64,000 bases of DNA, taken from positions 103,687-167,686 of the forward strand of contig JAOAJD010000001.1 of the NCBI GenBank assembly GCA_026414365.1, given 5' to 3'. The notes below the pieces were generated by a model, which was not told where the DNA came from, did no database searches, and worked only from the letters and a program-made list of their open reading frames with translations. The DNA is from Candidatus Iainarchaeum sp. GTDB taxonomy: Archaea; Iainarchaeota; Iainarchaeia; Iainarchaeales; SKW153. The position numbers and the translations under genes are program-made. Below, piece after piece: positions 14,511 through 51,117 of the stretch; the stretch's first letter is position 1, and each line of letters begins with the position of its first letter.

Positions 14511-15053
14511 CTATGTAAAACCGCCCATTAAATCATAACAAACATCAAAAAAAATAATTGCCAGGAAATATTCAAAACTAAAATAACCAAACAAAACCAA
14601 AAATAAAATTGTGAACTTAAGAACAGCCCTATACCTAAAAAAATAGTAAATAGAAAGCAAAAAATAATTTTTTTTGTTTTTTATCATATCGACTAAATCA
14701 TTGCCAAACTCATCAACAATAGCAGCAAATAGTAAAATAGGAAGAAGATAGAACTGAATGTTAAAATTGCTAAAGAACAATAAAAGAAATATTGTTGAGA
14801 TAAAACCAAGAAAATGAGCAATATTATCTACTTTGCCTGCTAAAAATGAACCTAATAAAATAGATAGAAGAATGGTAGCAGATATTTCGCTTATCATCAT
14901 AGCATAAACCCAAATTAATGAAAGTAATAGTGCTATCAAAATCGCTTTATTCTTACTGAAACTATTTTTATCAAAAGCGTTGTCTATAATTTTTAACCCT
15001 GCTCCCAAAACACCATACAAAAAAACTAGTAATAAATTGACACTTCCTATCAT
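14511..15053 (-). CDS. Multi-pass membrane protein at the end of lipid module A
   Basis: 180 residues with about six predicted helices. Three acidic motifs sit at membrane borders: KIIDNAFD near residue 21, GKVDNIAHFLG near 73 and VDEFGNDLVDMI near 112. Such aspartate clusters between helices are common in enzymes that handle isoprenoid or phosphate substrates, but no family could be named. It begins 14 bases after the stop of the FAD reductase gene on the same strand, so it is likely co-transcribed with the UbiA/reductase/V4R/KaiC module. Module B has no counterpart. Confidence 0.65.
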   Translation of the reverse strand: MIGSVNLLLVFLYGVLGAGLKIIDNAFDKNSFSKNKAILIALLLSLIWVYAMMISEISATILLSILLGSFLAGKVDNIAHFLGFISTIFLLLFFSNFNIQFYLLPILLFAAIVDEFGNDLVDMIKNKKNYFLLSIYYFFRYRAVLKFTILFLVLFGYFSFEYFLAIIFFDVCYDLMGGFT

Positions 15054-15067
15054 AAAAAATACTTGAC

Positions 15068-16120
15068 TTATTTTACCATAAGTCCAAATCTTTTTTTAGA
15101 ATCTTTTATCTTATTGGACTTTGATATCTTTAACATTACTCTATTTATTAGAGATTGACTTTTTTTTACATATGTCTCAAAGATTTTCTCTTTAGAATTA
15201 AATGCTTCTGCACAATATTTGCCACTTTCCAAAGCAAAACTTATTCCTTCTCCACTGCTAGGACTTATCAAACAAGCTGCTTCTCCAACTAAAAAAATAT
15301 TATTTTTTCCTAAGAAGATATCTCTCTTTGAATTTGGTCTACATATTAAATATGCTGAAAGTTTACCTTCATTTGATAGTTTAAACCTATCTTTAATTTT
15401 TTCCTTTAGTAATTCAAATCTAACCAATGCATCTTCTAAAGGTAAAGCAGAACCCAAAAGCAATTTATTACCTTTAGGAATAATCCAAGAATAAAAATCA
15501 GTTATACTATTGTCATAAATGAAATAAGATATATTTAAACCAGGGTTATCGAATGTCTGTTGTATTGCTAAGTAATGAGGTATTGGTTTACCATATAGCT
15601 TTCTCCTTATAACAGAGCTAGCACCATCACATCCAACTAAATATTTGCACACTACTGTCCTAACCTCGGAGTTACTCTCTAGAACAACAACAACGAAGTC
15701 TTTTTTTTTGGTAAAGTAAAAATCTATTAGGAATGTTTTCTCTAAAAAAGAAATATTCTTATCATCTAACCATGATAATAACCACCTATCAAACTCTTTT
15801 CTGTTGACATTTAGAAAATTCTTTTTAGAATATTTCGTTATATTGTTCTCCAAATCCAAATAAATTAAATCCAATCTTTTTGGTTGTGAGAATATATTTT
15901 CTGGAATATCAAATTTACTCAAAAACGATTCTGAGTTTTTTACTAATATACCACCACATGGTTTATCACGTGGAATTTTTGACCCATCTATCAACAACAC
16001 AGAATAATCCTCAGTAGAAATGTCATTACAAAAAGAACAACCTGCAGGACCGCTGCCAACAACAACAATATCGTAAGCAGGCTTTATTTCATCAATAGAA
16101 ATTTTTTTCAAATCAACCAC
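15068..16120 (-). CDS. FAD-dependent reductase of the geranylgeranyl reductase family (module A)
   Basis: 350 residues. The N-terminal FAD motif is DIVVVGSGPAGCSF. It is followed by KIPRDKPCGGILV, the PCGG motif typical of geranylgeranyl reductases. It continues NVNRKEFDRWLLSW, YLVGCDGASSVIRRKL and the FAD-contacting VGEAACLISPSSGEGISFALESGKYCAEA. Known members hydrogenate isoprenoid chains of archaeal lipids or of chlorophyll. It starts at GTG 16120, just after a UbiA prenyltransferase. It is paralogous along its whole length to the reductase at 49600-50616. It could be digeranylgeranylglycerophospholipid reductase, but the substrate is not determined. Confidence 0.88.
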   Translation of the reverse strand: MVDLKKISIDEIKPAYDIVVVGSGPAGCSFCNDISTEDYSVLLIDGSKIPRDKPCGGILVKNSESFLSKFDIPENIFSQPKRLDLIYLDLENNITKYSKKNFLNVNRKEFDRWLLSWLDDKNISFLEKTFLIDFYFTKKKDFVVVVLESNSEVRTVVCKYLVGCDGASSVIRRKLYGKPIPHYLAIQQTFDNPGLNISYFIYDNSITDFYSWIIPKGNKLLLGSALPLEDALVRFELLKEKIKDRFKLSNEGKLSAYLICRPNSKRDIFLGKNNIFLVGEAACLISPSSGEGISFALESGKYCAEAFNSKEKIFETYVKKSQSLINRVMLKISKSNKIKDSKKRFGLMVK

Positions 16121-16164
16121 ACTTTATATTAAACTGAAATGTTAAGAAATTATTTAATTAAGAT

Positions 16165-17070
16165 CTATAGCAAAAATTTGTGATATGCTGCTAATACTAG
16201 TAATGAATAATAAAAAAACATTGCCAAAAGCCTCCCTATTGCAAATGCTTTAACACCTTGTTTAGGTTCTGGATTATTAAAAAGAATATACTCGTTAGTG
16301 ACAAATCCTAATAAAGTTATAAGGCCTACAAACCAAGCTAATATGTTATCCATATAAAAAGTATAAATATAGTAAACAGAAAGAGGAATAAATAGGACAG
16401 CACACAAAATAGCTAAAGGAATAATTTTATTTGGGCCATAAAGAATTGCAGCTGTCATTTTACCAGATTTCTTATCTCCTTCCACATCCTTAAAATCTTT
16501 TATCAGAGTAACTGATAAATACACACCAGTCATAAACAAGCACAAAAGCAAGAAGTTTTGTGGTAAAATAAAAGAATCTTTTGCCAAAAAACCACCAAAT
16601 AGTGCAGGAAGTAGAATAGTTGCAATAGCCAAACCAATGTTTGCAATTATCCCTTTTCTGTCAATTCTAAACGGAGGACAACTATATAAAACGCCAACAA
16701 TTACAAATACTATTGCACCCAATAATAAATAGAAAGAAACTGAAGCAAAAATAAATCCTAAAAAATACATTAACACTGCAAATAATTTGGCCGATTTTAA
16801 AGAAATCTCTTTTTTAGACAATGGTCTGAAAGGCATATTATGTTTATCTTCCTCAATATCATAAACATCATTTAAAGTTGTTCCACCCATATAAAAAAGC
16901 AAAAAAGTCATAAATGCAGAAAACAATAAAACCAAAGAAGGATTACTTGAAAGTAACAAATAAGTCAAAACAGCTACTGCTCCTATAAGAGCTCCATTCC
17001 AAGGTCTTCCTAGAAGAAGATAATTAAGTATTTTATTTTTTCCTGCTAGTTTAGAAAAAAATTCCTCCAT
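16165..17070 (-). CDS. UbiA-family prenyltransferase (module A)
   Basis: 301 residues, about eight to nine transmembrane helices. The two Mg-binding motifs are intact: NDVYDIEED (residues 67-75) and DFKDVEGD (192-199). LYSCPPFRIDRKGIIANIGLA (about 128-148) recalls the YSAPPLKLKxNG segment of chlorophyll-synthase-type members. The enzyme should transfer a polyprenyl group; candidates are geranylgeranylglyceryl phosphate (DGGGP synthase) or an unknown acceptor. A strong GAGGTGG ribosome site precedes ATG 17070. It lies between the V4R gene and the reductase, all on one strand. The paralogue is at 47547-48434. Confidence 0.88.
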   Translation of the reverse strand: MEEFFSKLAGKNKILNYLLLGRPWNGALIGAVAVLTYLLLSSNPSLVLLFSAFMTFLLFYMGGTTLNDVYDIEEDKHNMPFRPLSKKEISLKSAKLFAVLMYFLGFIFASVSFYLLLGAIVFVIVGVLYSCPPFRIDRKGIIANIGLAIATILLPALFGGFLAKDSFILPQNFLLLCLFMTGVYLSVTLIKDFKDVEGDKKSGKMTAAILYGPNKIIPLAILCAVLFIPLSVYYIYTFYMDNILAWFVGLITLLGFVTNEYILFNNPEPKQGVKAFAIGRLLAMFFYYSLLVLAAYHKFLL

Positions 17071-17074
17071 GAAA

Positions 17075-17081
17075 CCACCTC
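17075..17081 (-). promoter_or_regulatory. Strong Shine-Dalgarno for the module A prenyltransferase
   Basis: GAGGTGG on the minus strand ends 4 bases before ATG 17070 and fixes this start. It shows that internal genes of the run rely on Shine-Dalgarno initiation, while some first genes appear leaderless. Confidence 0.7.
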
Positions 17082-17089
17082 TAAAAAAA

Positions 17090-17740
17090 TTATTCTATTC
17101 CGAAAAATGCAGGATCTTCTCCGAAATCTTTCATAAACTTAGTCTCTTTTTCTATTAAATAACTTAAATCAAACTGCTTTTTAATAAATTCTTCGCCTAA
17201 CTCCGCAATTCTGTGTGGTGCTAAATTTGCATGCAAACAATATTGTCCATTTTGAGCTGCACACTCAAATTCAACATTATTCATCAAGGTTTCGTGAACC
17301 CAACAGCCACCACCTGATTCTATGCCCCTTACAAAATAACAAAAAATATTATCATTTTTATAGAATTGTAATGCAAAAGGATTTCCTATAACCTTAAATT
17401 TAGCATGATCTGCTCTTTTGAAGCTGAGTGTTTGATAATCACCAAAACCGAGTACACTCATTATATCCATACAAACTTTATATCTCTCTTCAAATTTTTT
17501 TAGTTTGAGTTGATTAACTATATTTTTTGTTACAACAAAACCATATACCCAACCATAAAAATAAAGATCTGTTAAAGCCTTTATATCTTTTTTAAGCGCA
17601 TCTCTGGTCATTTCTTTTATTGTTTCCATAGAACAAAGAAAGAAAGGTAAATCAAAAGCTATTATTTTTCCTTGTTCAAACTTTATTTTTCTTCCCAAAA
17701 GCAATTTTGCTAATGTTCCCCCAAATTCCAACAAAATCAC
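17090..17740 (-). CDS. V4R-like (hydrocarbon-binding) domain protein (module A)
   Basis: 216 residues. The C-terminal half fits the 4-vinyl-reductase (V4R) domain: MSVLGFGDYQTLSFKRADHAKFKVIGNPFA, VRGIESGGGCWVHETL, then VEFECAAQNGQYC with a CX7C pair (Cys160, Cys168). The N-terminal half (FEQGKIIAFDLPFFLCSM...) resembles the C-terminal half of the module B V4R protein. V4R domains occur in BchJ and in regulators sensing hydrophobic ligands. Its ATG overlaps the stop of the KaiC-like gene by 4 bases, so the two are translationally coupled. It is followed by the UbiA gene. Probable role: ligand-binding sensor or carrier, inferred. Confidence 0.75.
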   Translation of the reverse strand: MILLEFGGTLAKLLLGRKIKFEQGKIIAFDLPFFLCSMETIKEMTRDALKKDIKALTDLYFYGWVYGFVVTKNIVNQLKLKKFEERYKVCMDIMSVLGFGDYQTLSFKRADHAKFKVIGNPFALQFYKNDNIFCYFVRGIESGGGCWVHETLMNNVEFECAAQNGQYCLHANLAPHRIAELGEEFIKKQFDLSYLIEKETKFMKDFGEDPAFFGIE

Positions 17741-18537
17741 TTCATCAAAACATCCATTGCATTTGCCAAATCAACTTCGATACCTTTGTTTGATACTATT
17801 GAATAAGGAATATAACTCTTATTATGATCAGTATACCTCATTTTTCTTATCCTGAGAGTTAGACTATTTGCTCCTTCTATGCCCAAAAAATATGTATTTA
17901 TAACACCATCACATATGAACTCAGAAATCTCATCAGCACTCAAGAAATCTGTTTTCTCTGGAAGTTCAGAGGTCATAATCACAGTCGCATTAAACAATCT
18001 TAATTTTCTAATCAGATGATAAAGCATTGCCCTTGCTATTATTCTTTCAGATTTTGGAATTGGTGATACTGATGTAACTACTTTAGCAAAAGTATATGGC
18101 TTCTTTTCGCTATCATCTGAAACTAAGATAGAATCTGTGAAGGTTGTTAATGAATCTATTACAATTCTTTGAGGGGCAAACTGAGCAACATTGTCATGCA
18201 CTTTTTCTAAGAAATCATCCCCTTCAACAATATCAAAATAAACTATTTTTAACAAATTTTTCTTTTCAAGATTTTCTAAATCCCAGCCAAATTGCATACC
18301 TGCTCTCAAAATCTCTGGCTTAGATTGCTCTGTGGATATGTAAAGGCCTCTCTCATTGTAAATCTTAGCCCCATTCACTAAATACTGCAAACAAAAAGTA
18401 CTTTTGCCAGTTCCACATCCGCCAGACAAAAGAACAATGTTGCCTTTTGGAATACCACCATTTAAAGCATCATCTAACCCTTTTATTCCTGTTGGAACTT
18501 TAGATATCAAATTATTCTTAGATAAATTCTCAACCAT
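17737..18537 (-). CDS. KaiC-like RecA-superfamily ATPase (module A)
   Basis: A single KaiC domain of about 266 residues. VPTGIKGLDDALNGGIPKGNIVLLSGGCGTGKST contains Walker A at residues 39-47. It continues GLYISTEQSKPEILRAGMQFGWDL, the Walker B strand RIVIDSLTTF, and VIMTSELPEK with DGVINTYFLGIEG near the end, as in archaeal KaiC/GvpD-like ATPases. These often work in signal transduction and transcription control. ATG 18537 is preferred over ATG 18564 because homologues begin shortly before the PTGIxGLD motif. It is first in the run KaiC-V4R-UbiA-reductase and overlaps V4R by 4 bases. The paralogue is at 46716. Confidence 0.87.
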   Translation of the reverse strand: MVENLSKNNLISKVPTGIKGLDDALNGGIPKGNIVLLSGGCGTGKSTFCLQYLVNGAKIYNERGLYISTEQSKPEILRAGMQFGWDLENLEKKNLLKIVYFDIVEGDDFLEKVHDNVAQFAPQRIVIDSLTTFTDSILVSDDSEKKPYTFAKVVTSVSPIPKSERIIARAMLYHLIRKLRLFNATVIMTSELPEKTDFLSADEISEFICDGVINTYFLGIEGANSLTLRIRKMRYTDHNKSYIPYSIVSNKGIEVDLANAMDVLMK

Positions 18538-18787
18538 ATTGTAGTAAATAATATAAAAACCCATTATTAAAACTTACTAAAAATAAAAATGGGGAAACTA
18601 TTATTTTAATTATCTGATCATGGCACAGATAAATATTTTTTTGATAAATTTATTAGAATAACTAAGACATAAGTATTTTGTTAAATTTTACTTTATAGAT
18701 GAGACTGAATATATAAATTAACAAAAAATCTACTTAAATCGAACAAAATAAAATTTTAATAAGGATGTTAAGAAGAAAAATAGATAA

Positions 18788-20587: not shown

Positions 20588-21148
20588 TTAAATGTTAATT
20601 TGTCTCCTAACAATTTCGTTATTAAAATCAAAGTCAGAAGTTCTTTTTATCACAAACTCACAGAAAGGGTAATTTGTCGCATAACACTTTAGTTCAACGC
20701 AATCTACATTATCTTTAAAATAATGCGAAAATATACCTGCAAAAAACCCTCTAAGAATATGATCTACAGGATAATTTACCTTACCTTTTAAAGGCATTGC
20801 AATCGGCGAATTCTCTACCTTTAAGATTGCTCGCTTAAAATTCATATCCAAACTTAATGTCTCTATTGCTCCCCAACCAGAAGCAGAAATAAAATCTTCT
20901 AAAAGCTTTAAGAACTGATGATCGTTTAATCTAAACTGCGAATCAAAACTTTTTACTAAATTTTTTAAAGTTGCCTCTTTAACATCTTCATAAAGAATTT
21001 TATCAAAAGTTAAGTTTTGCTCTGCACATATACCTAAAAGAATATCAACAGGCAATATTACAAAAGGAAGTTCTGCTAAGTAAAAGTTATTATGAACATA
21101 CCTCAATGTTGAAGTATATAAAAATTTATCTAGAAAACTGTTAAGCAT
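20588..21148 (-). CDS. V4R-domain protein between two winged-helix genes
   Basis: 186 residues from ATG 21148, the start that leaves an 8-base overlap (ATGCTTAA) with the upstream winged-helix gene; ATG 21199 would overlap it by 59 bases. The C-terminal part shows the V4R pattern: ASGWGAIETLSLDMNFKRAILKVENSPIA, an alpha region HILRGFFAGIFSHYF, then CVELKCYATNYPFCEFVIKR with a CX7C pair (Cys155, Cys163). It is the third V4R gene in the window. Probably a hydrophobic-ligand sensor acting with the adjacent DNA-binding protein, by analogy with V4R-containing regulators. Confidence 0.75.
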   Translation of the reverse strand: MLNSFLDKFLYTSTLRYVHNNFYLAELPFVILPVDILLGICAEQNLTFDKILYEDVKEATLKNLVKSFDSQFRLNDHQFLKLLEDFISASGWGAIETLSLDMNFKRAILKVENSPIAMPLKGKVNYPVDHILRGFFAGIFSHYFKDNVDCVELKCYATNYPFCEFVIKRTSDFDFNNEIVRRQINI

Positions 21149-21458
21149 TCTTATCAACCTCAGAAGCCAAAATCTCGTGAATAGTTCTATATTTTTCAAC
21201 CTCTGCCGGCCAAACTATTAAAGCATTTCCTATACGTTTAGAAAATATTAGCTTTTTCTCATTAAGCTTTTTCAAATAATAAGAAAACTTAGAGGAGACT
21301 CTCCTTCTTTCATCCCTTGTTTTTGCAATTATGCCTAAATGTTCTGCTATCTCAACAGCACTTGTTGGCCAACATTCCAAAATACATTCCAAAATTTGCA
21401 TTTCCCTAATTGACAGATTATCTTCTTTTTTTATTGGCAAGCCAGATAGTCTTCTCAT
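21141..21458 (-). CDS. Winged-helix DNA-binding protein coupled to V4R gene
   Basis: 105 residues. LSIREMQILECILECWPTSAVEIAEHLGI forms helices 1-2, and DERRRVSSKFSYYLKKLNEKKLIFSKRIGNALIVWP the recognition helix and wing. This is the layout of MarR/ArsR-like archaeal regulators. Its stop overlaps the V4R start at 21148 by 8 bases, so the sensor and the DNA-binding protein are made together. They could form a two-protein one-component regulator. Targets unknown; module A ends 2.6 kb downstream on the same strand. Confidence 0.7.
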   Translation of the reverse strand: MRRLSGLPIKKEDNLSIREMQILECILECWPTSAVEIAEHLGIIAKTRDERRRVSSKFSYYLKKLNEKKLIFSKRIGNALIVWPAEVEKYRTIHEILASEVDKNA

Positions 21459-21607: not shown

Positions 21608-22555
21608 ATGGAAAACTGCATACTGTCAATTGATATGCATACACATCTCTTAGAAAAAAAAGTGAAACCAAAAAAATATTGGGAGAGAGCCAAAAAAATA
21701 GGACTAAACGCTGTAGCTATATGCGAACATTCAGAAATGAACCCAAAGAAAGCATATGATGTTTTGAAAAAAGAGATGATCCCTGAAACACAATTGATTC
21801 CGGGTATGGAGGTAAAAACTGAGAAAGGCCACATTTTAGCATACTCAGAGGATGAAAATATTTATTCAATTAAAGAACTTGGGCAGAAAGAGATAAATTT
21901 TGAAGAATTATTTGATGTTGCCAAAGAGAATAATTTGATACTAAGCATAGCACACCCATGGGGATTTGATTATGATAGTTTAGGTTTCTATTTTGACCAA
22001 GAAGAAATTGAAGAGTTAGTAAAAAGAGAATTTGTAGGGGTAGAAGCCTATAATGGGATGATTGGATATCTAGGAAATTTCATTTATGATTCAAGTTGGA
22101 TAAAAAAGCCCATAAACTTTTTTGATTTTCTTGAAAAAAACAAGATTTTAAGTAAAATAGGTATGACAAAAATTACGGGTAAAATAACAAAGACAATTGA
22201 CAAACAAAGATTAGAAGTATTAAAGAGAAATATAAAAGCCATCGAGTTAAGCAAATTATCAAAATTTGTTACTGCCGGTTCGGATGCACACACAGCTGAT
22301 AGACTCGGTACAGGAATAATGAAAGTAAAATTTTACGAAAGCGAAATAACTCCTAAAAATATCTTAGAGTCAATACTAAAAAAAGAAAATGTTATTTGGG
22401 CTGGCCCATTGGTGAGAGAAGTTGACAATGGAATGTATGAAAAAGTATACGAGCCAATAAAGAGAAAAGAGATTTTAGAAGGGATCACATATATAACTAA
22501 AAGTATTATAAAGAAACAAATTGGCAAGCTAAAAAAAATTGAAAAATCAACTTAA
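21608..22555 (+). CDS. PHP-domain metal-dependent phosphoesterase
   Basis: 315 residues. Metal-ligand motifs of the PHP (polymerase and histidinol phosphatase) fold are present: SIDMHTHL at the start, AICEHSEM, LIPGMEVKTEKGHILAYS, SIAHPWGF and VTAGSDAHTADRLGTG near residue 225. Stand-alone PHP proteins often hydrolyse phosphate esters such as nucleotide or histidinol phosphates. The substrate cannot be told from sequence. It converges with ribAB, whose coding region overlaps it by 4 bases at the stop codons. Confidence 0.85.
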   Translation: MENCILSIDMHTHLLEKKVKPKKYWERAKKIGLNAVAICEHSEMNPKKAYDVLKKEMIPETQLIPGMEVKTEKGHILAYSEDENIYSIKELGQKEINFEELFDVAKENNLILSIAHPWGFDYDSLGFYFDQEEIEELVKREFVGVEAYNGMIGYLGNFIYDSSWIKKPINFFDFLEKNKILSKIGMTKITGKITKTIDKQRLEVLKRNIKAIELSKLSKFVTAGSDAHTADRLGTGIMKVKFYESEITPKNILESILKKENVIWAGPLVREVDNGMYEKVYEPIKRKEILEGITYITKSIIKKQIGKLKKIEKST

Positions 22556-46702: not shown

Positions 46703-46709
46703 AGGGGTG
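46703..46709 (+). promoter_or_regulatory. Shine-Dalgarno deciding the start of module B KaiC-like gene
   Basis: AGGGGTG ends 6 bases before ATG 46716. The GTG within it (46707) opens the same frame but would leave no ribosome site, so ATG 46716 is the better start. Confidence 0.65.
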
Positions 46710-46715
46710 TATCTT

Positions 46716-47447
46716 ATGGTAAAAAGAGTAAAAAGTTATATATCTGGTTTAGACAAAATGTTAAATGGTGGATTCCCCGAAAATAGTGTTGTCATAATAA
46801 ATGGCGGTCCTGGAACAGGAAAAACAATAATCTGTACACAGATTGCATACTATAATGCACTCAATGGAAATAAAGTTGTATTATTTGACCTCGAACAAAA
46901 CAGAGAAAAAATTATAGAGCAAATGAAACAATTTAAGTGGAGTTTTGAAAAAGTGAAAAGGAATATGGAAATAATAACGATCGAAGATGTGGAAAAAGAA
47001 AAAGGCAACTATTTAGAGTATCTTTTAGAAAAAATAAATAAAACAAAATATGATATTATAGTAATTGACTCTTTGGATTCAATAATTACATACTTGTTAA
47101 AAGAAGAGGACATAAAAAAGATAGGAATAGAAAAAATAAAGGATATAGTAGTGCCTGCAATAATTGATGCTGAACATGTAGAAAGAATGAAGATAAAACA
47201 TATCTTTGAAATGCTTACTAAATCTAAAGCTACTTCTCTGATAACAAGTGAAAAAGTTGATGGGGAAATTGGAAACACTAGAGACAAAATCTCAGAATTT
47301 TTGTGTGATGGAATGATAACTTTGAATAGAAATTCTATAAGCGGAGGATTAACAAGAACAATAGAAGTAGTAAAAATGAGAAGAACTAATATAGATAGTA
47401 GTGTTCACTCTTTTGATTTTAAGAAAGGGGGAATATTTGTAGAATAG
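46716..47447 (+). CDS. KaiC-like RecA-superfamily ATPase (module B)
   Basis: 243 residues, a single KaiC domain. VKSYISGLDKMLNGGFPENSVVIINGGPGTGKT carries Walker A at residues 30-37. It continues VVLFDLEQNREKIIEQMKQFKW, Walker B DIIVIDSLDSII, ATSLITSEKVDGEIG and DGMITLNRNSISGGLTRTIEVVKMRRT near the end. It is paralogous to the module A ATPase but with a 34-residue hydrophilic insertion after Walker B (LLKEEDIKKIGIEKIKD...). First gene of KaiC-UbiA-V4R-reductase. Likely a signalling or regulatory ATPase; partners inferred from the conserved neighbourhood. Confidence 0.85.
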   Translation: MVKRVKSYISGLDKMLNGGFPENSVVIINGGPGTGKTIICTQIAYYNALNGNKVVLFDLEQNREKIIEQMKQFKWSFEKVKRNMEIITIEDVEKEKGNYLEYLLEKINKTKYDIIVIDSLDSIITYLLKEEDIKKIGIEKIKDIVVPAIIDAEHVERMKIKHIFEMLTKSKATSLITSEKVDGEIGNTRDKISEFLCDGMITLNRNSISGGLTRTIEVVKMRRTNIDSSVHSFDFKKGGIFVE

Positions 47448-47546
47448 CAATATTAAAATAGTAACAGTAGTAGAACTTTTATATAAGTTAACAAAATTAA
47501 TTTTAATTTTTGTCAAAAGTATACTCTTGATATTTTTTGATTCTTT

Positions 47547-48434
47547 ATGAAAACCATTAACAAAATGAATCTTAAATTTATCTTAGATGCAATAATTACA
47601 CTTAACATTTACCTTTCTTTTGGAATTGCATTAACTGCATTAGCTTTTGGCTTTTTAATTAGTGGAAAATTAGATGTTGGTTTATTTTTGATTGTTTTTT
47701 TACCTACGTGGTCTCTATATTTATTGAATAGAATAACAGATAAAGAAGAGGATTTGATAAATAAACCGGAAAGAAAAAATATTATTGAAACATACAATAA
47801 AACAATAATTTGTGTTATTGTTATAACCTACTTGCTTGCAATACTTTTGGCTTTAAGAACAAATATCAACTTGTTCTTTTTATTGTTAATTATATTATTT
47901 ATAGGCATAATATACAGTGTAAAAATTACAAAACTAAAAAAAATAATCGGTTATTATAGATTAAAACAAATCTTTTTGATAAAAAATATAACAATAGCCA
48001 TTGATTGGGCATTAGCTACTGCAATAATTCCTGTACTATATTATAATCTGCCAATAAATATTCAATCAATTGTATTAGCAACTTTTTTATTTATTAGATC
48101 AAATATAAACACAATCGTATTTGACATTCCTGATGTAGAAGGAGATAGAAAACATAAAGTAATGACAATACCGGTTAAATTAGGTGTAGAAAAAACAATC
48201 TATTGGATGTATATACTAAATACTATATCTCTAATACTAATAATATTTTCTGTATTAATAGGAATTTTACCAAATTTGGCATATGGGTTATTAATTGGAC
48301 CAATGATGGGATATGCATTCCTTTATCTTTTAGATAAACCTAATACGATAAGTACAAAAAACCTATTAGATTGGATAGTAGATGGAGAATTTTTAATTAC
48401 TGGAATGTTTATAATATTATTGGGAATATTTTGA
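47547..48434 (+). CDS. UbiA-family prenyltransferase (module B)
   Basis: 295 residues, about eight to nine transmembrane helices. The Mg-binding motifs are NRITDKEED (residues 61-69) and DIPDVEGD (193-200), followed by MTIPVKLGVEKT. NRxxD at the first motif, instead of the ND of module A, separates the two paralogues. The typical middle YSVKITKLKKIIGYYRLKQIFLIKNITIAIDWALATAIIP matches members acting on aromatic, tetrapyrrole or lipid acceptors. It lies 99 bases after KaiC and 7 bases before the V4R gene. Acceptor unknown. Confidence 0.87.
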   Translation: MKTINKMNLKFILDAIITLNIYLSFGIALTALAFGFLISGKLDVGLFLIVFLPTWSLYLLNRITDKEEDLINKPERKNIIETYNKTIICVIVITYLLAILLALRTNINLFFLLLIILFIGIIYSVKITKLKKIIGYYRLKQIFLIKNITIAIDWALATAIIPVLYYNLPINIQSIVLATFLFIRSNINTIVFDIPDVEGDRKHKVMTIPVKLGVEKTIYWMYILNTISLILIIFSVLIGILPNLAYGLLIGPMMGYAFLYLLDKPNTISTKNLLDWIVDGEFLITGMFIILLGIF

Positions 48435-48441
48435 TCTTTGC

Positions 48442-49587
48442 ATGGAAAATATCAAAAATAAAATAGTTAAATGGTTTATAGAGAATATTATTGTTCCAAA
48501 AGCAGAGAGGATAGATATAGCTGGTTTTATTATCTTAAAATTATCCGAAGAAAGAAACAATGTTAATATAAGAGAAATAAGTATTCCAGAAAAAATACTA
48601 TGTAATATTGAATCAGCAATTGTAACAAACAAACCTGAAAAAGGTAAGTATATTTTATATTGTACTGGGAAAAATTTTGGATATAGATACGCAAAAATAT
48701 GTAAATATCCCCATATTAGAAATGCATCTGTTAAGCAAATCGACAAATTTTTAGACTATTTCCTTACATACATGGAAGCAGTATTTTTTGGTAAAAATAT
48801 CAAACACTCTGCAAATTTTGATAAGAAAATTTACAATATGCAAATGGAAGATTATGTAGTATGTGGAAAAAATGGTTTAGGTTATATTCTCACTGATGGC
48901 GGATGTGCAGGGACTTGGGCATACCTTGTCCAAGACTTTTCTATCGAAGGTGTGCAAACAAAATGTAAAGGAAGGGGTGATGACCATTGCGAAGTAATTT
49001 GTGCCCCACCAACATATCTTAAAAAGAACAACATAAAGTACCTTACTGAGAATAATCTAAAAGAAGATTTTGAGGGTTTATCATCACAATATCAAATGTT
49101 TAATGAAGTAAGAGAAACAAAATATGGAAAAACATCATTGAAAGATCTAATAAACGCAAATGTTTTTAGTTTGAAAAATGGTCAACTGAGTCTTAATAAT
49201 GAAAGATATATCTTAATTGAGGCCGGTTTCTTATACATGTTAGAAGATGGTTTAAGGAAAATGGGGGAAGAAAAATTAATAGAAAAATATGCTTTTGAGT
49301 TTGCAAAAGATTTGATAAAAAAAGAAAAAACAACAAATATAGAAAACTTTGCAATGAATTTACTGTCTGCTATGGGCTTTGGAGATGTATTAATAATAAA
49401 AAGGTCTGGTAAATATTATGTTCAATTTAACTATTTCCCTTGGACAGAATTAGCAGAAAATTCTAAATTCTTATATATAAAAGGTTTTACAGCCGGACTA
49501 CTATCAAAAAAAAGAAATGTAATACTGGATGGCCCAAAGATAAGTACTAAAAATAAATTTCTTAGTTTAACTTTCGTAGAGAAATGA
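48442..49587 (+). CDS. Double V4R-like protein (module B)
   Basis: 381 residues. The N-terminal half ends with a typical V4R pattern: VCGKNGLGYILTDGGCAGTWAYLVQDFSIEGVQTKCKGRGDDHCEVIC, CX7C at Cys175 and Cys183. The C-terminal half (LKNGQLSLNNERYILIEAGFLYMLEDGLRKMGEEKLIEKYAFEFAKDL, then NLLSAMGFGDVLIIKRSGKYYVQF) resembles the module A V4R protein but lacks the cysteines. So it looks like two V4R modules in one chain, one keeping the metal/ligand cysteines and one not. It is 7 bases after UbiA and 12 bases before the reductase. Confidence 0.75.
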   Translation: MENIKNKIVKWFIENIIVPKAERIDIAGFIILKLSEERNNVNIREISIPEKILCNIESAIVTNKPEKGKYILYCTGKNFGYRYAKICKYPHIRNASVKQIDKFLDYFLTYMEAVFFGKNIKHSANFDKKIYNMQMEDYVVCGKNGLGYILTDGGCAGTWAYLVQDFSIEGVQTKCKGRGDDHCEVICAPPTYLKKNNIKYLTENNLKEDFEGLSSQYQMFNEVRETKYGKTSLKDLINANVFSLKNGQLSLNNERYILIEAGFLYMLEDGLRKMGEEKLIEKYAFEFAKDLIKKEKTTNIENFAMNLLSAMGFGDVLIIKRSGKYYVQFNYFPWTELAENSKFLYIKGFTAGLLSKKRNVILDGPKISTKNKFLSLTFVEK

Positions 49588-49599
49588 AAAGAGATTCTT

Positions 49600-50616
49600 A
49601 TGATAAATCTTAATCTAACAGAGATATCTGATTATTATGATGTTGTCATAATTGGTGCTGGCCCAGCAGGATGTAGTTCAGCTAAGAATCTATCAGAAGA
49701 ACTAAAAGCAATAATTATCGACTCAAATAAATTACCTAGAGAGAAGCCTTGTGGGGGAATATTAGTAAAAGAAGCTATGAACTTCATAAAAAATCTAAAA
49801 CCGCCTGAAAAAATATTTGTCGAACCGAAAGAAATAAAGATCGAATACATTGATTTAAACAAAAATGAAAAATTTTTCTCTAATGAGAAGTATTGGAATA
49901 TAGACAGAAAGGAATTTGATAAATGGCTATTATATTTGGCAAAAGAAAATAAAATAGATGTTTGCGACAATACTTTCCTATTAGATTTCTATTATTCGAA
50001 AAAGGGAAAAGAAAACATAACACTTAAACTAAAATCTCCTTATTTTGAGAGAGAAATAAAAACAAAATATTTGATAGGTTGTGATGGAGCACTCTCTACA
50101 ATCAGAAGAAAAATATTTCCTAAAAAAATTCGTTGGCTAATGGGAATGCAAGAAATAACTAAAAACAGCATTAATCTAAAAAACACTGTTTTTATCTATG
50201 ACAATGAAATATGCGACTCATATTCTTGGTTAATACCAAAAGATAACAAAGTTATAATAGGCTCTGGTTTAGAACCTAAAGAAGCTAAACAAAAGTTTGG
50301 GTTACTTAGAAGAAAAATTAGAGGAATGTTTGGCAAATTAGAAAATGGCATGATTAATGGTTGGCCTGCGTTGAATCCTAACAGCATTTCAGACATATTC
50401 TTAGGTAAAGATAATATATTGCTAGCAGGAGAAGCAGCTGGCTTAATAAGTCCAACAAGCAGCGAAGGTATAAGTTTTGCTTTAGAGAGTGGTAAATATT
50501 GTGCAGAGGCAATAAATGAAAGTTGTGAAGATTTGGTTGAAAGGTATTCAAAGAAATGCGAGAGTTTAGTAAAAAGGATTAGCGAAAAATTAAATTTAAA
50601 AAAAATGAAAAAATAA
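49600..50616 (+). CDS. FAD-dependent reductase of the geranylgeranyl reductase family (module B)
   Basis: 338 residues, colinear with the reductase at 15068-16120. FAD motif DVVIIGAGPAGCSSAKNL, then KLPREKPCGGILVKEAM (PCGG), NIDRKEFDKWLLYL, YLIGCDGALSTIRRKIFP, DSYSWLIPKDNKVIIGSGLEPKEA and LAGEAAGLISPTSSEGISFALESGKYCAEAI. The two reductases share almost every motif. They differ in the middle substrate-facing region (WLMGMQEITKN against HYLAIQQTFDN). Last gene of module B. Probable role: saturation of an isoprenoid chain, substrate unknown. Confidence 0.88.
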   Translation: MINLNLTEISDYYDVVIIGAGPAGCSSAKNLSEELKAIIIDSNKLPREKPCGGILVKEAMNFIKNLKPPEKIFVEPKEIKIEYIDLNKNEKFFSNEKYWNIDRKEFDKWLLYLAKENKIDVCDNTFLLDFYYSKKGKENITLKLKSPYFEREIKTKYLIGCDGALSTIRRKIFPKKIRWLMGMQEITKNSINLKNTVFIYDNEICDSYSWLIPKDNKVIIGSGLEPKEAKQKFGLLRRKIRGMFGKLENGMINGWPALNPNSISDIFLGKDNILLAGEAAGLISPTSSEGISFALESGKYCAEAINESCEDLVERYSKKCESLVKRISEKLNLKKMKK

Positions 50617-50682: not shown

Positions 50683-51117
50683 CTAAGCAAAAAATAACAA
50701 AAGTTTAACCTTTTCAACTCCTTTTAAAGATTGAAATTTGGATGCTAAATCAATTATTACACTATCTTTCGCTCTTATCAAAACAGTTTCTAGACAATAT
50801 TTTTCATTTATGTGTACGTGATTGCTTGAGATTATGAAATTATTGAATTTATGTTGCAAATCAACAAGTTTATCCAATATTCTGCTCTTATTATGATCAT
50901 AAACTAAAGAAATTACGCCAAACGCATCTTTACCTTTAGATTCCCAAGAATAATTTTCTAAATAGTATTTCAATGCATCCGCTATTGCCTTGGATCTATT
51001 ACTATAAGCCTTACTCCTTATTAAAGAATCAAATTTCTCAAATAAATCTTTGTCAATAGATAAACTAATTCTTTTAACATACTTTTTTCCATTGACAGAT
51101 AACATATTACTATTCAT
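50683..51117 (-). CDS. nikR: Nickel-responsive regulator NikR
   Basis: 144 residues. The N-terminal ribbon-helix-helix (KRISLSIDKDLFEKFDSLIRSKAYSNRSKAIADALKYYL) is followed by the ACT-like metal-binding domain (KDAFGVISLVYDHNKSRILDKLVDLQHKFNNFIISSNHVHINEKYCLETVLIRA). The nickel ligands keep the exact E. coli NikR spacing: His89, His100, His102 and Cys108 here match His76, His87, His89 and Cys95. It should repress genes when nickel is bound. It is divergent from two small membrane protein genes, the natural candidates for its regulon. Confidence 0.93.
   Translation of the reverse strand: MNSNMLSVNGKKYVKRISLSIDKDLFEKFDSLIRSKAYSNRSKAIADALKYYLENYSWESKGKDAFGVISLVYDHNKSRILDKLVDLQHKFNNFIISSNHVHINEKYCLETVLIRAKDSVIIDLASKFQSLKGVEKVKLLLFFA

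What the first reader, a model, noticed from the sequence alone, without database searches (positions are those of the whole stretch)
46703..50616. Module B: a second, reordered copy of the same four-family set on the opposite strand
Seen: KaiC (46716), UbiA (47547), V4R (48442) and reductase (49600) on the plus strand, 30 kb from module A. The two reductases are colinear through every motif. The two UbiA proteins keep both Mg sites but differ at the first (ND against NR). Gene order differs (V4R and UbiA swapped), so this is not a simple recent tandem duplication. Retention of all four partners twice argues that they function together.
Basis: partly seen in the sequence, partly recalled or inferred. 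Interest (0 to 1): 0.88.

Follow-up and report, generated by a model that had tools for sequence, protein, structure and literature searches.

The report
A swappable archaeal lipid-tail gene module
In a small uncultured archaeon, the second four-gene set (an ATPase, a predicted sensor of oily molecules, and two enzymes predicted to attach and saturate prenyl tails) is not, as a whole, a copy of the first set; across relatives the sensor changes in step with the tail-attaching enzyme while it does not follow the ATPase, which likely marks a plug-in way of controlling how these cells make lipid tails.

Summary
In detail: KaiC, UbiA, V4R and a GGR-type reductase lie head to tail at 46707-50616 (+), 30 kb from a second such set (A) with another order. 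"Second copy" does not hold for the set as a whole. Trees reject a sister relation of A and B for KaiC, UbiA and V4R (p-AU 2e-4, 8e-69, 9e-72); only the reductases (47% identical) leave it open (p 0.11). In 75 genomes of the order (members named Diapherotrites) the KaiC-V4R pair recurs beside prenyl-chain enzymes that take each other's place: UbiA, a divergent GGGP synthase (PcrB), cis-prenyltransferase, several GGR types. V4R trees follow UbiA trees (Mantel r 0.74, p 0.0001, 13 loci with a Pfam-level UbiA) but not KaiC trees (r 0.05, p 0.31). V4R-B is modelled as a tandem V4R protein whose first half matches the phenol sensors PoxR/MopR/DmpR and keeps their zinc-ligand residues. The same genome has a separate housekeeping ether-lipid set. 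I propose a local ATP-driven sensor-switch: V4R senses the prenyl product of its partner transferase and KaiC actuates. Ligand, product and switch are inferred. Two tetrapyrrole markers are absent from all 75 genomes, so a chlorophyll-type pathway is unlikely.

The parts
46707..47447 (+). KaiC-B, single-domain KaiC/RecA-like ATPase (ATG at 46716)
   Evidence: Pfam KaiC 152.8 bits; Walker A GGPGTGKT, Walker B IVIDS; clade with two KaiC of G027 that also precede long V4R genes (99/96)
47547..48434 (+). UbiA-B, membrane prenyltransferase, variant first Asp motif NRxxDxxxD
   Evidence: Pfam UbiA 76.3 bits; both Asp motifs; nearest protein found P0019 at 47%; not in the DGGGP synthase clade
48442..49587 (+). 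V4R-B, tandem-V4R protein of the long (about 380 aa) type
49600..50616 (+). GGR-B, FAD reductase of the geranylgeranyl-reductase superfamily
   Evidence: TIGR02032 152.2 bits, PRK11445 224.5 bits, both under cut-off; solved relative 3oz2 (archaeal lipid reductase) E 3e-9; GAGPAG, PCGG, YSWLIP
17737..18564 (-). KaiC-A (module A), member of the order-wide KaiC-A group
17090..17740 (-). V4R-A (module A), short V4R, overlaps KaiC-A by 4 bases
   Evidence: no Pfam match; joins the other V4R in iterated profiles and one tree
16165..17070 (-). UbiA-A (module A)
   Evidence: Pfam UbiA 111.9 bits; 5-row clade 100/100
15068..16120 (-). GGR-A (module A)
14511..15053 (-). small membrane protein downstream of GGR-A; in 7 relatives its homologue sits between KaiC-A and a gene for a 123-133 aa protein
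20588..21199 (-). third V4R protein (V4R-C) with HTH gene 21141-21458 upstream, a recurrent neighbour of KaiC-A loci
   Evidence: Pfam V4R 47.6 bits; same arrangement in several relatives

Best explanation
Module B is a close-set KaiC-UbiA-V4R-reductase gene group whose KaiC, UbiA and V4R trees reject a sister relation with those of module A, and it likely works as a local sensor-switch on its own enzymes: the V4R protein is predicted to bind the prenyl compound that its partner UbiA makes or uses, the KaiC ATPase would turn that binding into on/off control, and the reductase would saturate the prenyl chain. Shown: the families, motifs and predicted V4R fold; the recurrence of KaiC-V4R beside prenyl-chain enzymes that take each other's place; the co-variation of V4R with UbiA (and less with GGR) but not with KaiC; a separate housekeeping ether-lipid set in the same genome. 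Inferred: the ligand, the acceptor of the prenyl group (a polar, glycerol-phosphate-like acceptor is my guess because a GGGP-synthase relative takes the place of UbiA in three relatives), direct contact of KaiC with V4R, and the direction of control.
For: (1) Linkage: of 36 KaiC-A-group loci, picked by KaiC alone, 27 have a V4R gene within 2 genes, and within 4 genes 11 have a Pfam-level UbiA (13 by my profile), 3 PcrB and 19 a GGR-family gene; of 12 KaiC-B-like loci 6, 3, 0 and 1; of 28 other KaiC loci 0, 0, 1 and 0, and that one PcrB hit is an SDR protein by Pfam. Fisher, A against control: V4R p 1e-10, UbiA/GGR 4e-7. (2) Enzyme swap: KaiC-V4R-PcrB-GGR in L055, KaiC-V4R-PcrB in L083 and L084, each beside a canonical PcrB elsewhere in the genome; KaiC-V4R with a cis-prenyltransferase in L061 and L114. 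(3) Matched pairs: V4R-UbiA Mantel r 0.49, p 0.0002 in 15 loci; without the two loci whose UbiA is doubtful r 0.74, p 0.0001 in 13 loci, V4R-KaiC r 0.05, p 0.31; V4R-GGR r 0.39, p 0.012 in 11 loci. (4) V4R-B: fold of the PoxR/MopR/DmpR sensor domain plus a second V4R domain; DmpR's zinc ligands (PMC7264223, passages) have counterparts in V4R-B; the three rows that lack the counterpart of C175 are the three PcrB-linked ones. (5) Spare set: GGGP synthase, DGGGP-synthase-like UbiA, archaeal lipid reductase and a trans-prenyl synthase lie elsewhere in the genome. (6) AU tests.
Against: No biochemical or expression data. The KaiC-A loci are orthologues in related genomes, so the Fisher counts are not independent; 16 of 36 A, 7 of 12 B and 15 of 28 control loci touch a contig end within 4 genes. 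5 of the 27 A loci with V4R nearby have, as I read, only the HTH-linked V4R-C type. 13 of 36 A loci and 6 of 12 B loci show none of the five prenyl-enzyme classes; V4R also neighbours FIST, aldehyde dehydrogenase, methyltransferase and deaminase genes, so the pair is not tied to prenyl enzymes alone. Two of the 13 profile-called UbiA (L051, L053) have no Pfam match, I had seeded my profile with them, and an unseeded comparison is weak (hhalign probability 19%, 35 columns). UbiA follows KaiC somewhat (r 0.31, p 0.03), and UbiA-GGR correlation is weak (r 0.02, p 0.39 in 13 loci; r 0.27, p 0.04 in 11). 6 of 28 control KaiC loci lie near a trans-prenyl synthase without V4R. The GGR pair may be sisters (p 0.11).
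Confidence: 0.5

Rival explanations
1. V4R is a carrier or chaperone, not a sensor: it holds the prenyl intermediate and hands it from UbiA to the reductase, with KaiC driving handover. A chaperone role has been suggested for BchJ, a V4R protein (family by recall) of the bacteriochlorophyll pathway that also contains a UbiA (BchG) and a GGR (BchP).
For: V4R co-varies with UbiA and, less, with GGR. Loss of bchJ in C. tepidum led to excretion of an intermediate and a chaperone role was suggested, unverified (PMC7242693, passages). The V4R fold includes TRAPPC3/Bet3, solved with covalently bound palmitate (6aq3).
Confidence: 0.25
2. Extra copies of ordinary membrane-lipid enzymes (second DGGGP synthase and reductase) that happen to sit beside regulatory genes.
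For: UbiA and GGR are the families of late steps of archaeal ether-lipid synthesis; PcrB, of the first prenyl-transfer step, takes UbiA's place in three relatives.
Against: UbiA-A and UbiA-B both fall outside the clade with the genome's own DGGGP synthase candidate and Methanothermobacter enzymes; GGR-A/B lie far from the housekeeping reductase and score better with PRK11445 and BchP-ChlP than with the DGGGPL-reductase model. Linkage with V4R is far above the KaiC control.
Confidence: 0.15
3. Module B arose from module A (or both from one ancestor) as a unit, followed by unequal divergence.
For: Same four families; GGR-A and GGR-B 47% identical and not rejected as sisters.
Against: Sister relation rejected for KaiC (p 2e-4), UbiA (8e-69), V4R (9e-72); each has other closest relatives.
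Confidence: 0.05
4. A tetrapyrrole-tail pathway of the chlorophyll type (BchJ-BchG-BchP likeness).
For: UbiA-A scores 76 bits with ChlG, GGR-B 120 bits with BchP-ChlP, both under cut-off.
Against: ALAD in 0 of 75 and CobN/Mg-chelatase in 0 of 75 genomes, with positive control genomes; the ChlG motif NDXXDRXXDXXXXXXR (PMC9066304, passage) is not met by either UbiA.
Confidence: 0.02

Closest known systems
Archaeal KaiC-like ATPases proposed as signal transduction hubs (Makarova, Galperin, Koonin 2017; paper not held, seen only as cited in PMC5847659)
   Same: Single-domain KaiC beside putative sensor genes in archaea
   Different: Here the sensor is V4R and the neighbours are prenyl-chain enzymes that take each other's place; whether that paper lists this neighbourhood I could not check
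PoxR / MopR / DmpR phenol-sensing domain (V4R)
   Different: Free-standing tandem V4R, no sigma54 AAA+ or DNA-binding part; the ATPase is a separate KaiC; 14-17% identity over the aligned part
BchJ-BchG-BchP (bacteriochlorophyll tail attachment)
   Same: V4R, UbiA and GGR families serve one pathway (V4R family of BchJ by recall)
   Different: Two tetrapyrrole markers absent from the order; ChlG motif not met; a KaiC is added
Archaeal ether-lipid enzymes GGGPS, DGGGPS, GGR
   Same: Families and, probably, chemistry
   Different: Separate housekeeping copies exist in the same genome; module enzymes form other clades
PRK11445 FAD-binding protein family (NCBIfam equivalog; E. coli CbrA by recall)
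   Same: Best named model for both GGR (224.5 and 242.9 bits)
   Different: Below the curated cut-off of 303 bits; archaeal, clustered with prenyltransferases

Membership tests
KaiC-like ATPase superfamily (PF06745) | Pfam score over cut-off; Walker A and B | tested here: met
   152.8 bits against 26.6; GGPGTGKT and IVIDS
Circadian clock KaiC (TIGR02655) | Two KaiC domains, equivalog cut-off | tested here: not met
   246 aa single domain; 66.5 bits against 546.25
UbiA prenyltransferase superfamily (PF01040) | Pfam score; two Asp-rich motifs; several membrane helices | tested here: met
   76.3 bits against 34.2; NRITDKEED and DIPDVEGD, 8 hydrophobic segments
DGGGP synthase (NCBIfam PRK12882/PRK12883) | Equivalog cut-off; grouping with known enzymes | tested here: not met
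   34.0 and 34.4 bits against 296 and 353; separate clade
V4R domain (PF02830) | Pfam cut-off | tested here: not met
   15.6 bits against 31, residues 168-186
V4R fold (PoxR/MopR/Bet3) | Fold match over most of a domain | tested here: met
Zinc site of aromatic-sensing V4R (DmpR Cys151, Glu172, Cys177, Cys185) | Four ligand residues in corresponding places | tested here: inconclusive
   C141, E169, C175, C183 all present in 19 of 22 rows; correspondence by sequence and spacing only, geometry not measured
Geranylgeranyl reductase superfamily (TIGR02032) | Subfamily cut-off 158.8 bits | tested here: not met
   152.2 (B) and 151.3 (A) bits, just under
Geranylgeranyl reductase superfamily (TIGR02032) | Reduction of prenyl double bonds | not testable with these tools
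   needs an assay
Chlorophyll synthase ChlG | NDXXDRXXDXXXXXXR motif | tested here: not met
   UbiA-A NDVYDIEEDKHNMPFR, UbiA-B NRITDKEEDLINKPER (motif from PMC9066304)
Whole-module duplication of A | A and B sisters in all four trees | tested here: not met
   rejected for three of four families; GGR undecided

The most novel reading that the evidence does not exclude
A plug-in lipid-sensing system: a generic KaiC motor stays put in the chromosome while V4R receptors, each matched to the product of its own prenyltransferase, are exchanged together with that enzyme (UbiA, GGGP synthase, cis-prenyltransferase), so that one archaeal lineage builds several independently controlled prenyl-lipid branches. 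It would be the first KaiC that reads lipid chemistry, and the V4R fold (kin of the TRAPP subunit Bet3) would be a prenyl-lipid receptor.
Probability: 0.3. Interest if true: 0.85.

Novelty: new variant of a known kind. Interest (0 to 1): 0.62.

Why it matters
KaiC-like ATPases are common in archaea and for most the input is unknown (general knowledge, not from a call). Here one KaiC group has a defined partner fold that binds hydrophobic or aromatic ligands in solved relatives, and a defined enzyme class as likely target, so the question what such a KaiC senses becomes testable with four proteins. It would also show how small-genome archaea regulate tail chemistry beyond the housekeeping ether-lipid pathway, and it gives an archaeal metabolic setting for V4R, the proposed ancestor of the TRAPP subunit Bet3 (PMC2253512, passages).
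Full report
WHAT IS THERE. Window 46707-50616 (+) holds four co-directional genes with gaps of 99, 7 and 12 bases: KaiC (246 aa), UbiA (295 aa), a 381 aa protein and a FAD reductase (338 aa). Pfam supports KaiC, UbiA and the FAD domain above cut-off. The 381 aa protein reaches only 15.6 bits with V4R (cut-off 31). Module A, on the minus strand at 15068-18564, holds KaiC, V4R (216 aa, no Pfam match), UbiA and reductase in another order, followed by a small membrane protein at 14511-15053. Both KaiC keep Walker A and B, both UbiA keep two Asp motifs (ND in A, NR in B), both reductases keep GxGPAG, PCGG and YSWxIP.

THE ORGANISM. The window lies in a 579 kb partial genome (68.5% complete). Protein records whose contig lengths equal those of relatives in its order (G022, G067, G012) are named Candidatus Diapherotrites and archaeon GW2011_AR10 (P0039, P0050, P0056), so I take the order to be Diapherotrites (Iainarchaeota); one V4R-B relative (P0006) is filed under Aenigmatarchaeota.

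B IS NOT, AS A SET, A COPY OF A. Identity between A and B is 47% for GGR (332 columns), 33% for KaiC (224), 28% for UbiA (212), and for V4R 22 identical residues of 70 aligned. In the KaiC tree A sits in a 34-row group and B in a 5-row group with two KaiC of G027 and those of G070 and G072. In the UbiA tree A is in a 5-row clade of module-A genomes (100/100) and B with P0019-P0024, one of them from a Halobacteriota bin (98/92). In the V4R tree A is in a 5-row clade of the same genomes (100/100) and B in a 23-row clade of long proteins (100/100). AU tests reject A+B for KaiC (p 2.1e-4), UbiA (8e-69) and V4R (9e-72). For GGR, both lie in one large clade, B with P0033 and P0034 (100/98), but A+B is not rejected (p 0.11). 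So three of four parts have separate histories; the reductase may or may not have been copied.

WHAT THE RELATIVES SHOW. One search found 36 genomes of 75 with a KaiC-A-group gene (34 at 250 bits or more, plus broken ones in G047 and G004); I fetched a locus for each of the 36. Within two genes of KaiC there is a V4R gene in 27 (five of these, as I read, only the HTH-linked V4R-C type). Within four genes there is UbiA in 13 by my profile, 11 of them also by Pfam; PcrB in 3, a GGR-family gene in 19, a cis-prenyltransferase in 2, a trans-prenyl synthase in 1. Sixteen of the 36 touch a contig end. Twelve KaiC-B-like loci, the window's included, give V4R 6, UbiA 3, PcrB 0, GGR 1, cis-prenyltransferase 2, trans-prenyl synthase 1. 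The control, 28 other KaiC genes in 21 of 22 regions examined, gives V4R 0, UbiA 0, GGR 0, PcrB 1 (an SDR protein by Pfam), trans-prenyl synthase 6. The last number counts against a special link of the pair with trans-prenyl synthases.

SWAPS. KaiC-V4R-UbiA-GGR as in A: L052, L056, L054 (one reverse gene before GGR), and L093 up to its contig end. KaiC-UbiA-V4R-GGR as in B: L058 (which also has the small membrane protein) and L100 (GGR reversed, in two ORFs). UbiA reversed: L057, L060, L094, L097, and the doubtful L051 and L053. KaiC-long V4R-PcrB: L055 (with a GGR of the A/B type), L083, L084; in these three genomes the divergent PcrB stands beside a canonical PcrB elsewhere. KaiC-V4R with a cis-prenyltransferase: L061, L114. 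In seven loci the small membrane protein plus a 123-133 aa protein stand where V4R and UbiA stand elsewhere, in five of them followed by another GGR type. Other KaiC-V4R loci carry FIST or aldehyde dehydrogenase genes, a methyltransferase or a deaminase. Five genomes hold more than one such set (G000, G012, G027, G070, G072).

MATCHED PAIRS. For 15 loci with KaiC, V4R and UbiA side by side, V4R and UbiA tree distances correlate (Mantel r 0.486, p 0.0002; partial on KaiC the same), V4R and KaiC do not (0.027, p 0.37), nor UbiA and KaiC (0.118, p 0.23). Two of these loci (L051, L053) have a doubtful UbiA; without them, 13 loci: V4R-UbiA 0.744 (p 0.0001; partial 0.768), V4R-KaiC 0.047 (p 0.31), UbiA-KaiC 0.306 (p 0.03); KaiC-A-type loci alone (11): V4R-UbiA 0.882. 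With GGR, 13 loci including the doubtful two: V4R-UbiA 0.371 (p 0.003), V4R-GGR 0.307 (p 0.015), UbiA-GGR 0.016 (p 0.39), V4R-KaiC 0.173 (p 0.11); 11 loci without them: 0.735, 0.387 (p 0.012), 0.265 (p 0.04), 0.087 (p 0.24). V4R is thus the part that follows the transferase most closely, and it does not follow KaiC.

WHICH PATHWAY. The genome has a separate GGGP synthase (C11:295041), a DGGGP-synthase-like UbiA (C11:38667; 157.7 bits with PRK12882, under its cut-off of 296), a lipid reductase (C11:410259; 235 bits with TIGR02032, above cut-off) and a trans-prenyl synthase (L110, Pfam 219 bits). The module enzymes score otherwise and cluster apart. ALAD and CobN/Mg-chelatase are absent from 75 of 75 genomes, with positive control genomes. 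I therefore read the modules as dedicated side branches of prenyl-lipid chemistry.

MECHANISM. Committed reading: V4R binds the prenyl compound of its partner transferase; occupancy changes KaiC; KaiC controls the enzymes; GGR saturates the chain. Likelihood about one half. The nearest rival is V4R as carrier, as suggested for BchJ (PMC7242693, passages).

NOVELTY. KaiC hubs, V4R sensors, UbiA and GGR are all known kinds. The combination, with exchange of the transferase and of the matching V4R beside an order-wide KaiC, I did not see in the listings searched (four of these were capped); the 2017 KaiC survey was not held and may mention parts of it.

Noticed in passing
window 20588-21458 (-) with PHP-domain gene 21608-22555 (+): A third V4R gene with an HTH gene directly upstream, beside a PHP-domain gene; the same arrangement lies near KaiC-A in several relatives, perhaps a conserved chromosomal address for module A.
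   Followed up: partly
window 14511-15053 (-); L058, L064, L095, L096, L099, L101, L103, L106: Small membrane protein with invariant acidic positions (ID..FD, DE...D, D..Y in the alignment of 9); in seven relatives it stands between KaiC-A and a gene for a 123-133 aa protein. No known family or fold found.
   Followed up: partly
L055, L083, L084: Divergent PcrB (GGGP synthase family) directly behind the long V4R gene, in addition to a canonical PcrB elsewhere; the V4R of these three lack one candidate zinc-ligand cysteine.
   Followed up: yes
L110 (own genome C11:278000-297000), L135, L136, L142, L143, L147: Another KaiC, outside the A and B groups, lies within four genes of a trans-prenyl (GGPP-type) synthase in six control loci.
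   Followed up: no
L083 (G009:C15): Two KaiC genes in tandem before long V4R and PcrB, only one of them of the KaiC-A group.
   Followed up: no
L051:8780-9646 (-), L053:3425-4291 (+): Related 288 aa proteins in the UbiA position between V4R and an A/B-type GGR, without a Pfam UbiA match; either very divergent UbiA or another enzyme in the same slot.
   Followed up: partly
window 50683-51117 (-): NikR-type nickel regulator (RHH plus NikR_C) convergent with module B, next to two small ORFs without a significant Pfam match.
   Followed up: no
L121, L123: V4R-C type gene beside two neighbouring trans-prenyl synthase genes (by profile).
   Followed up: no
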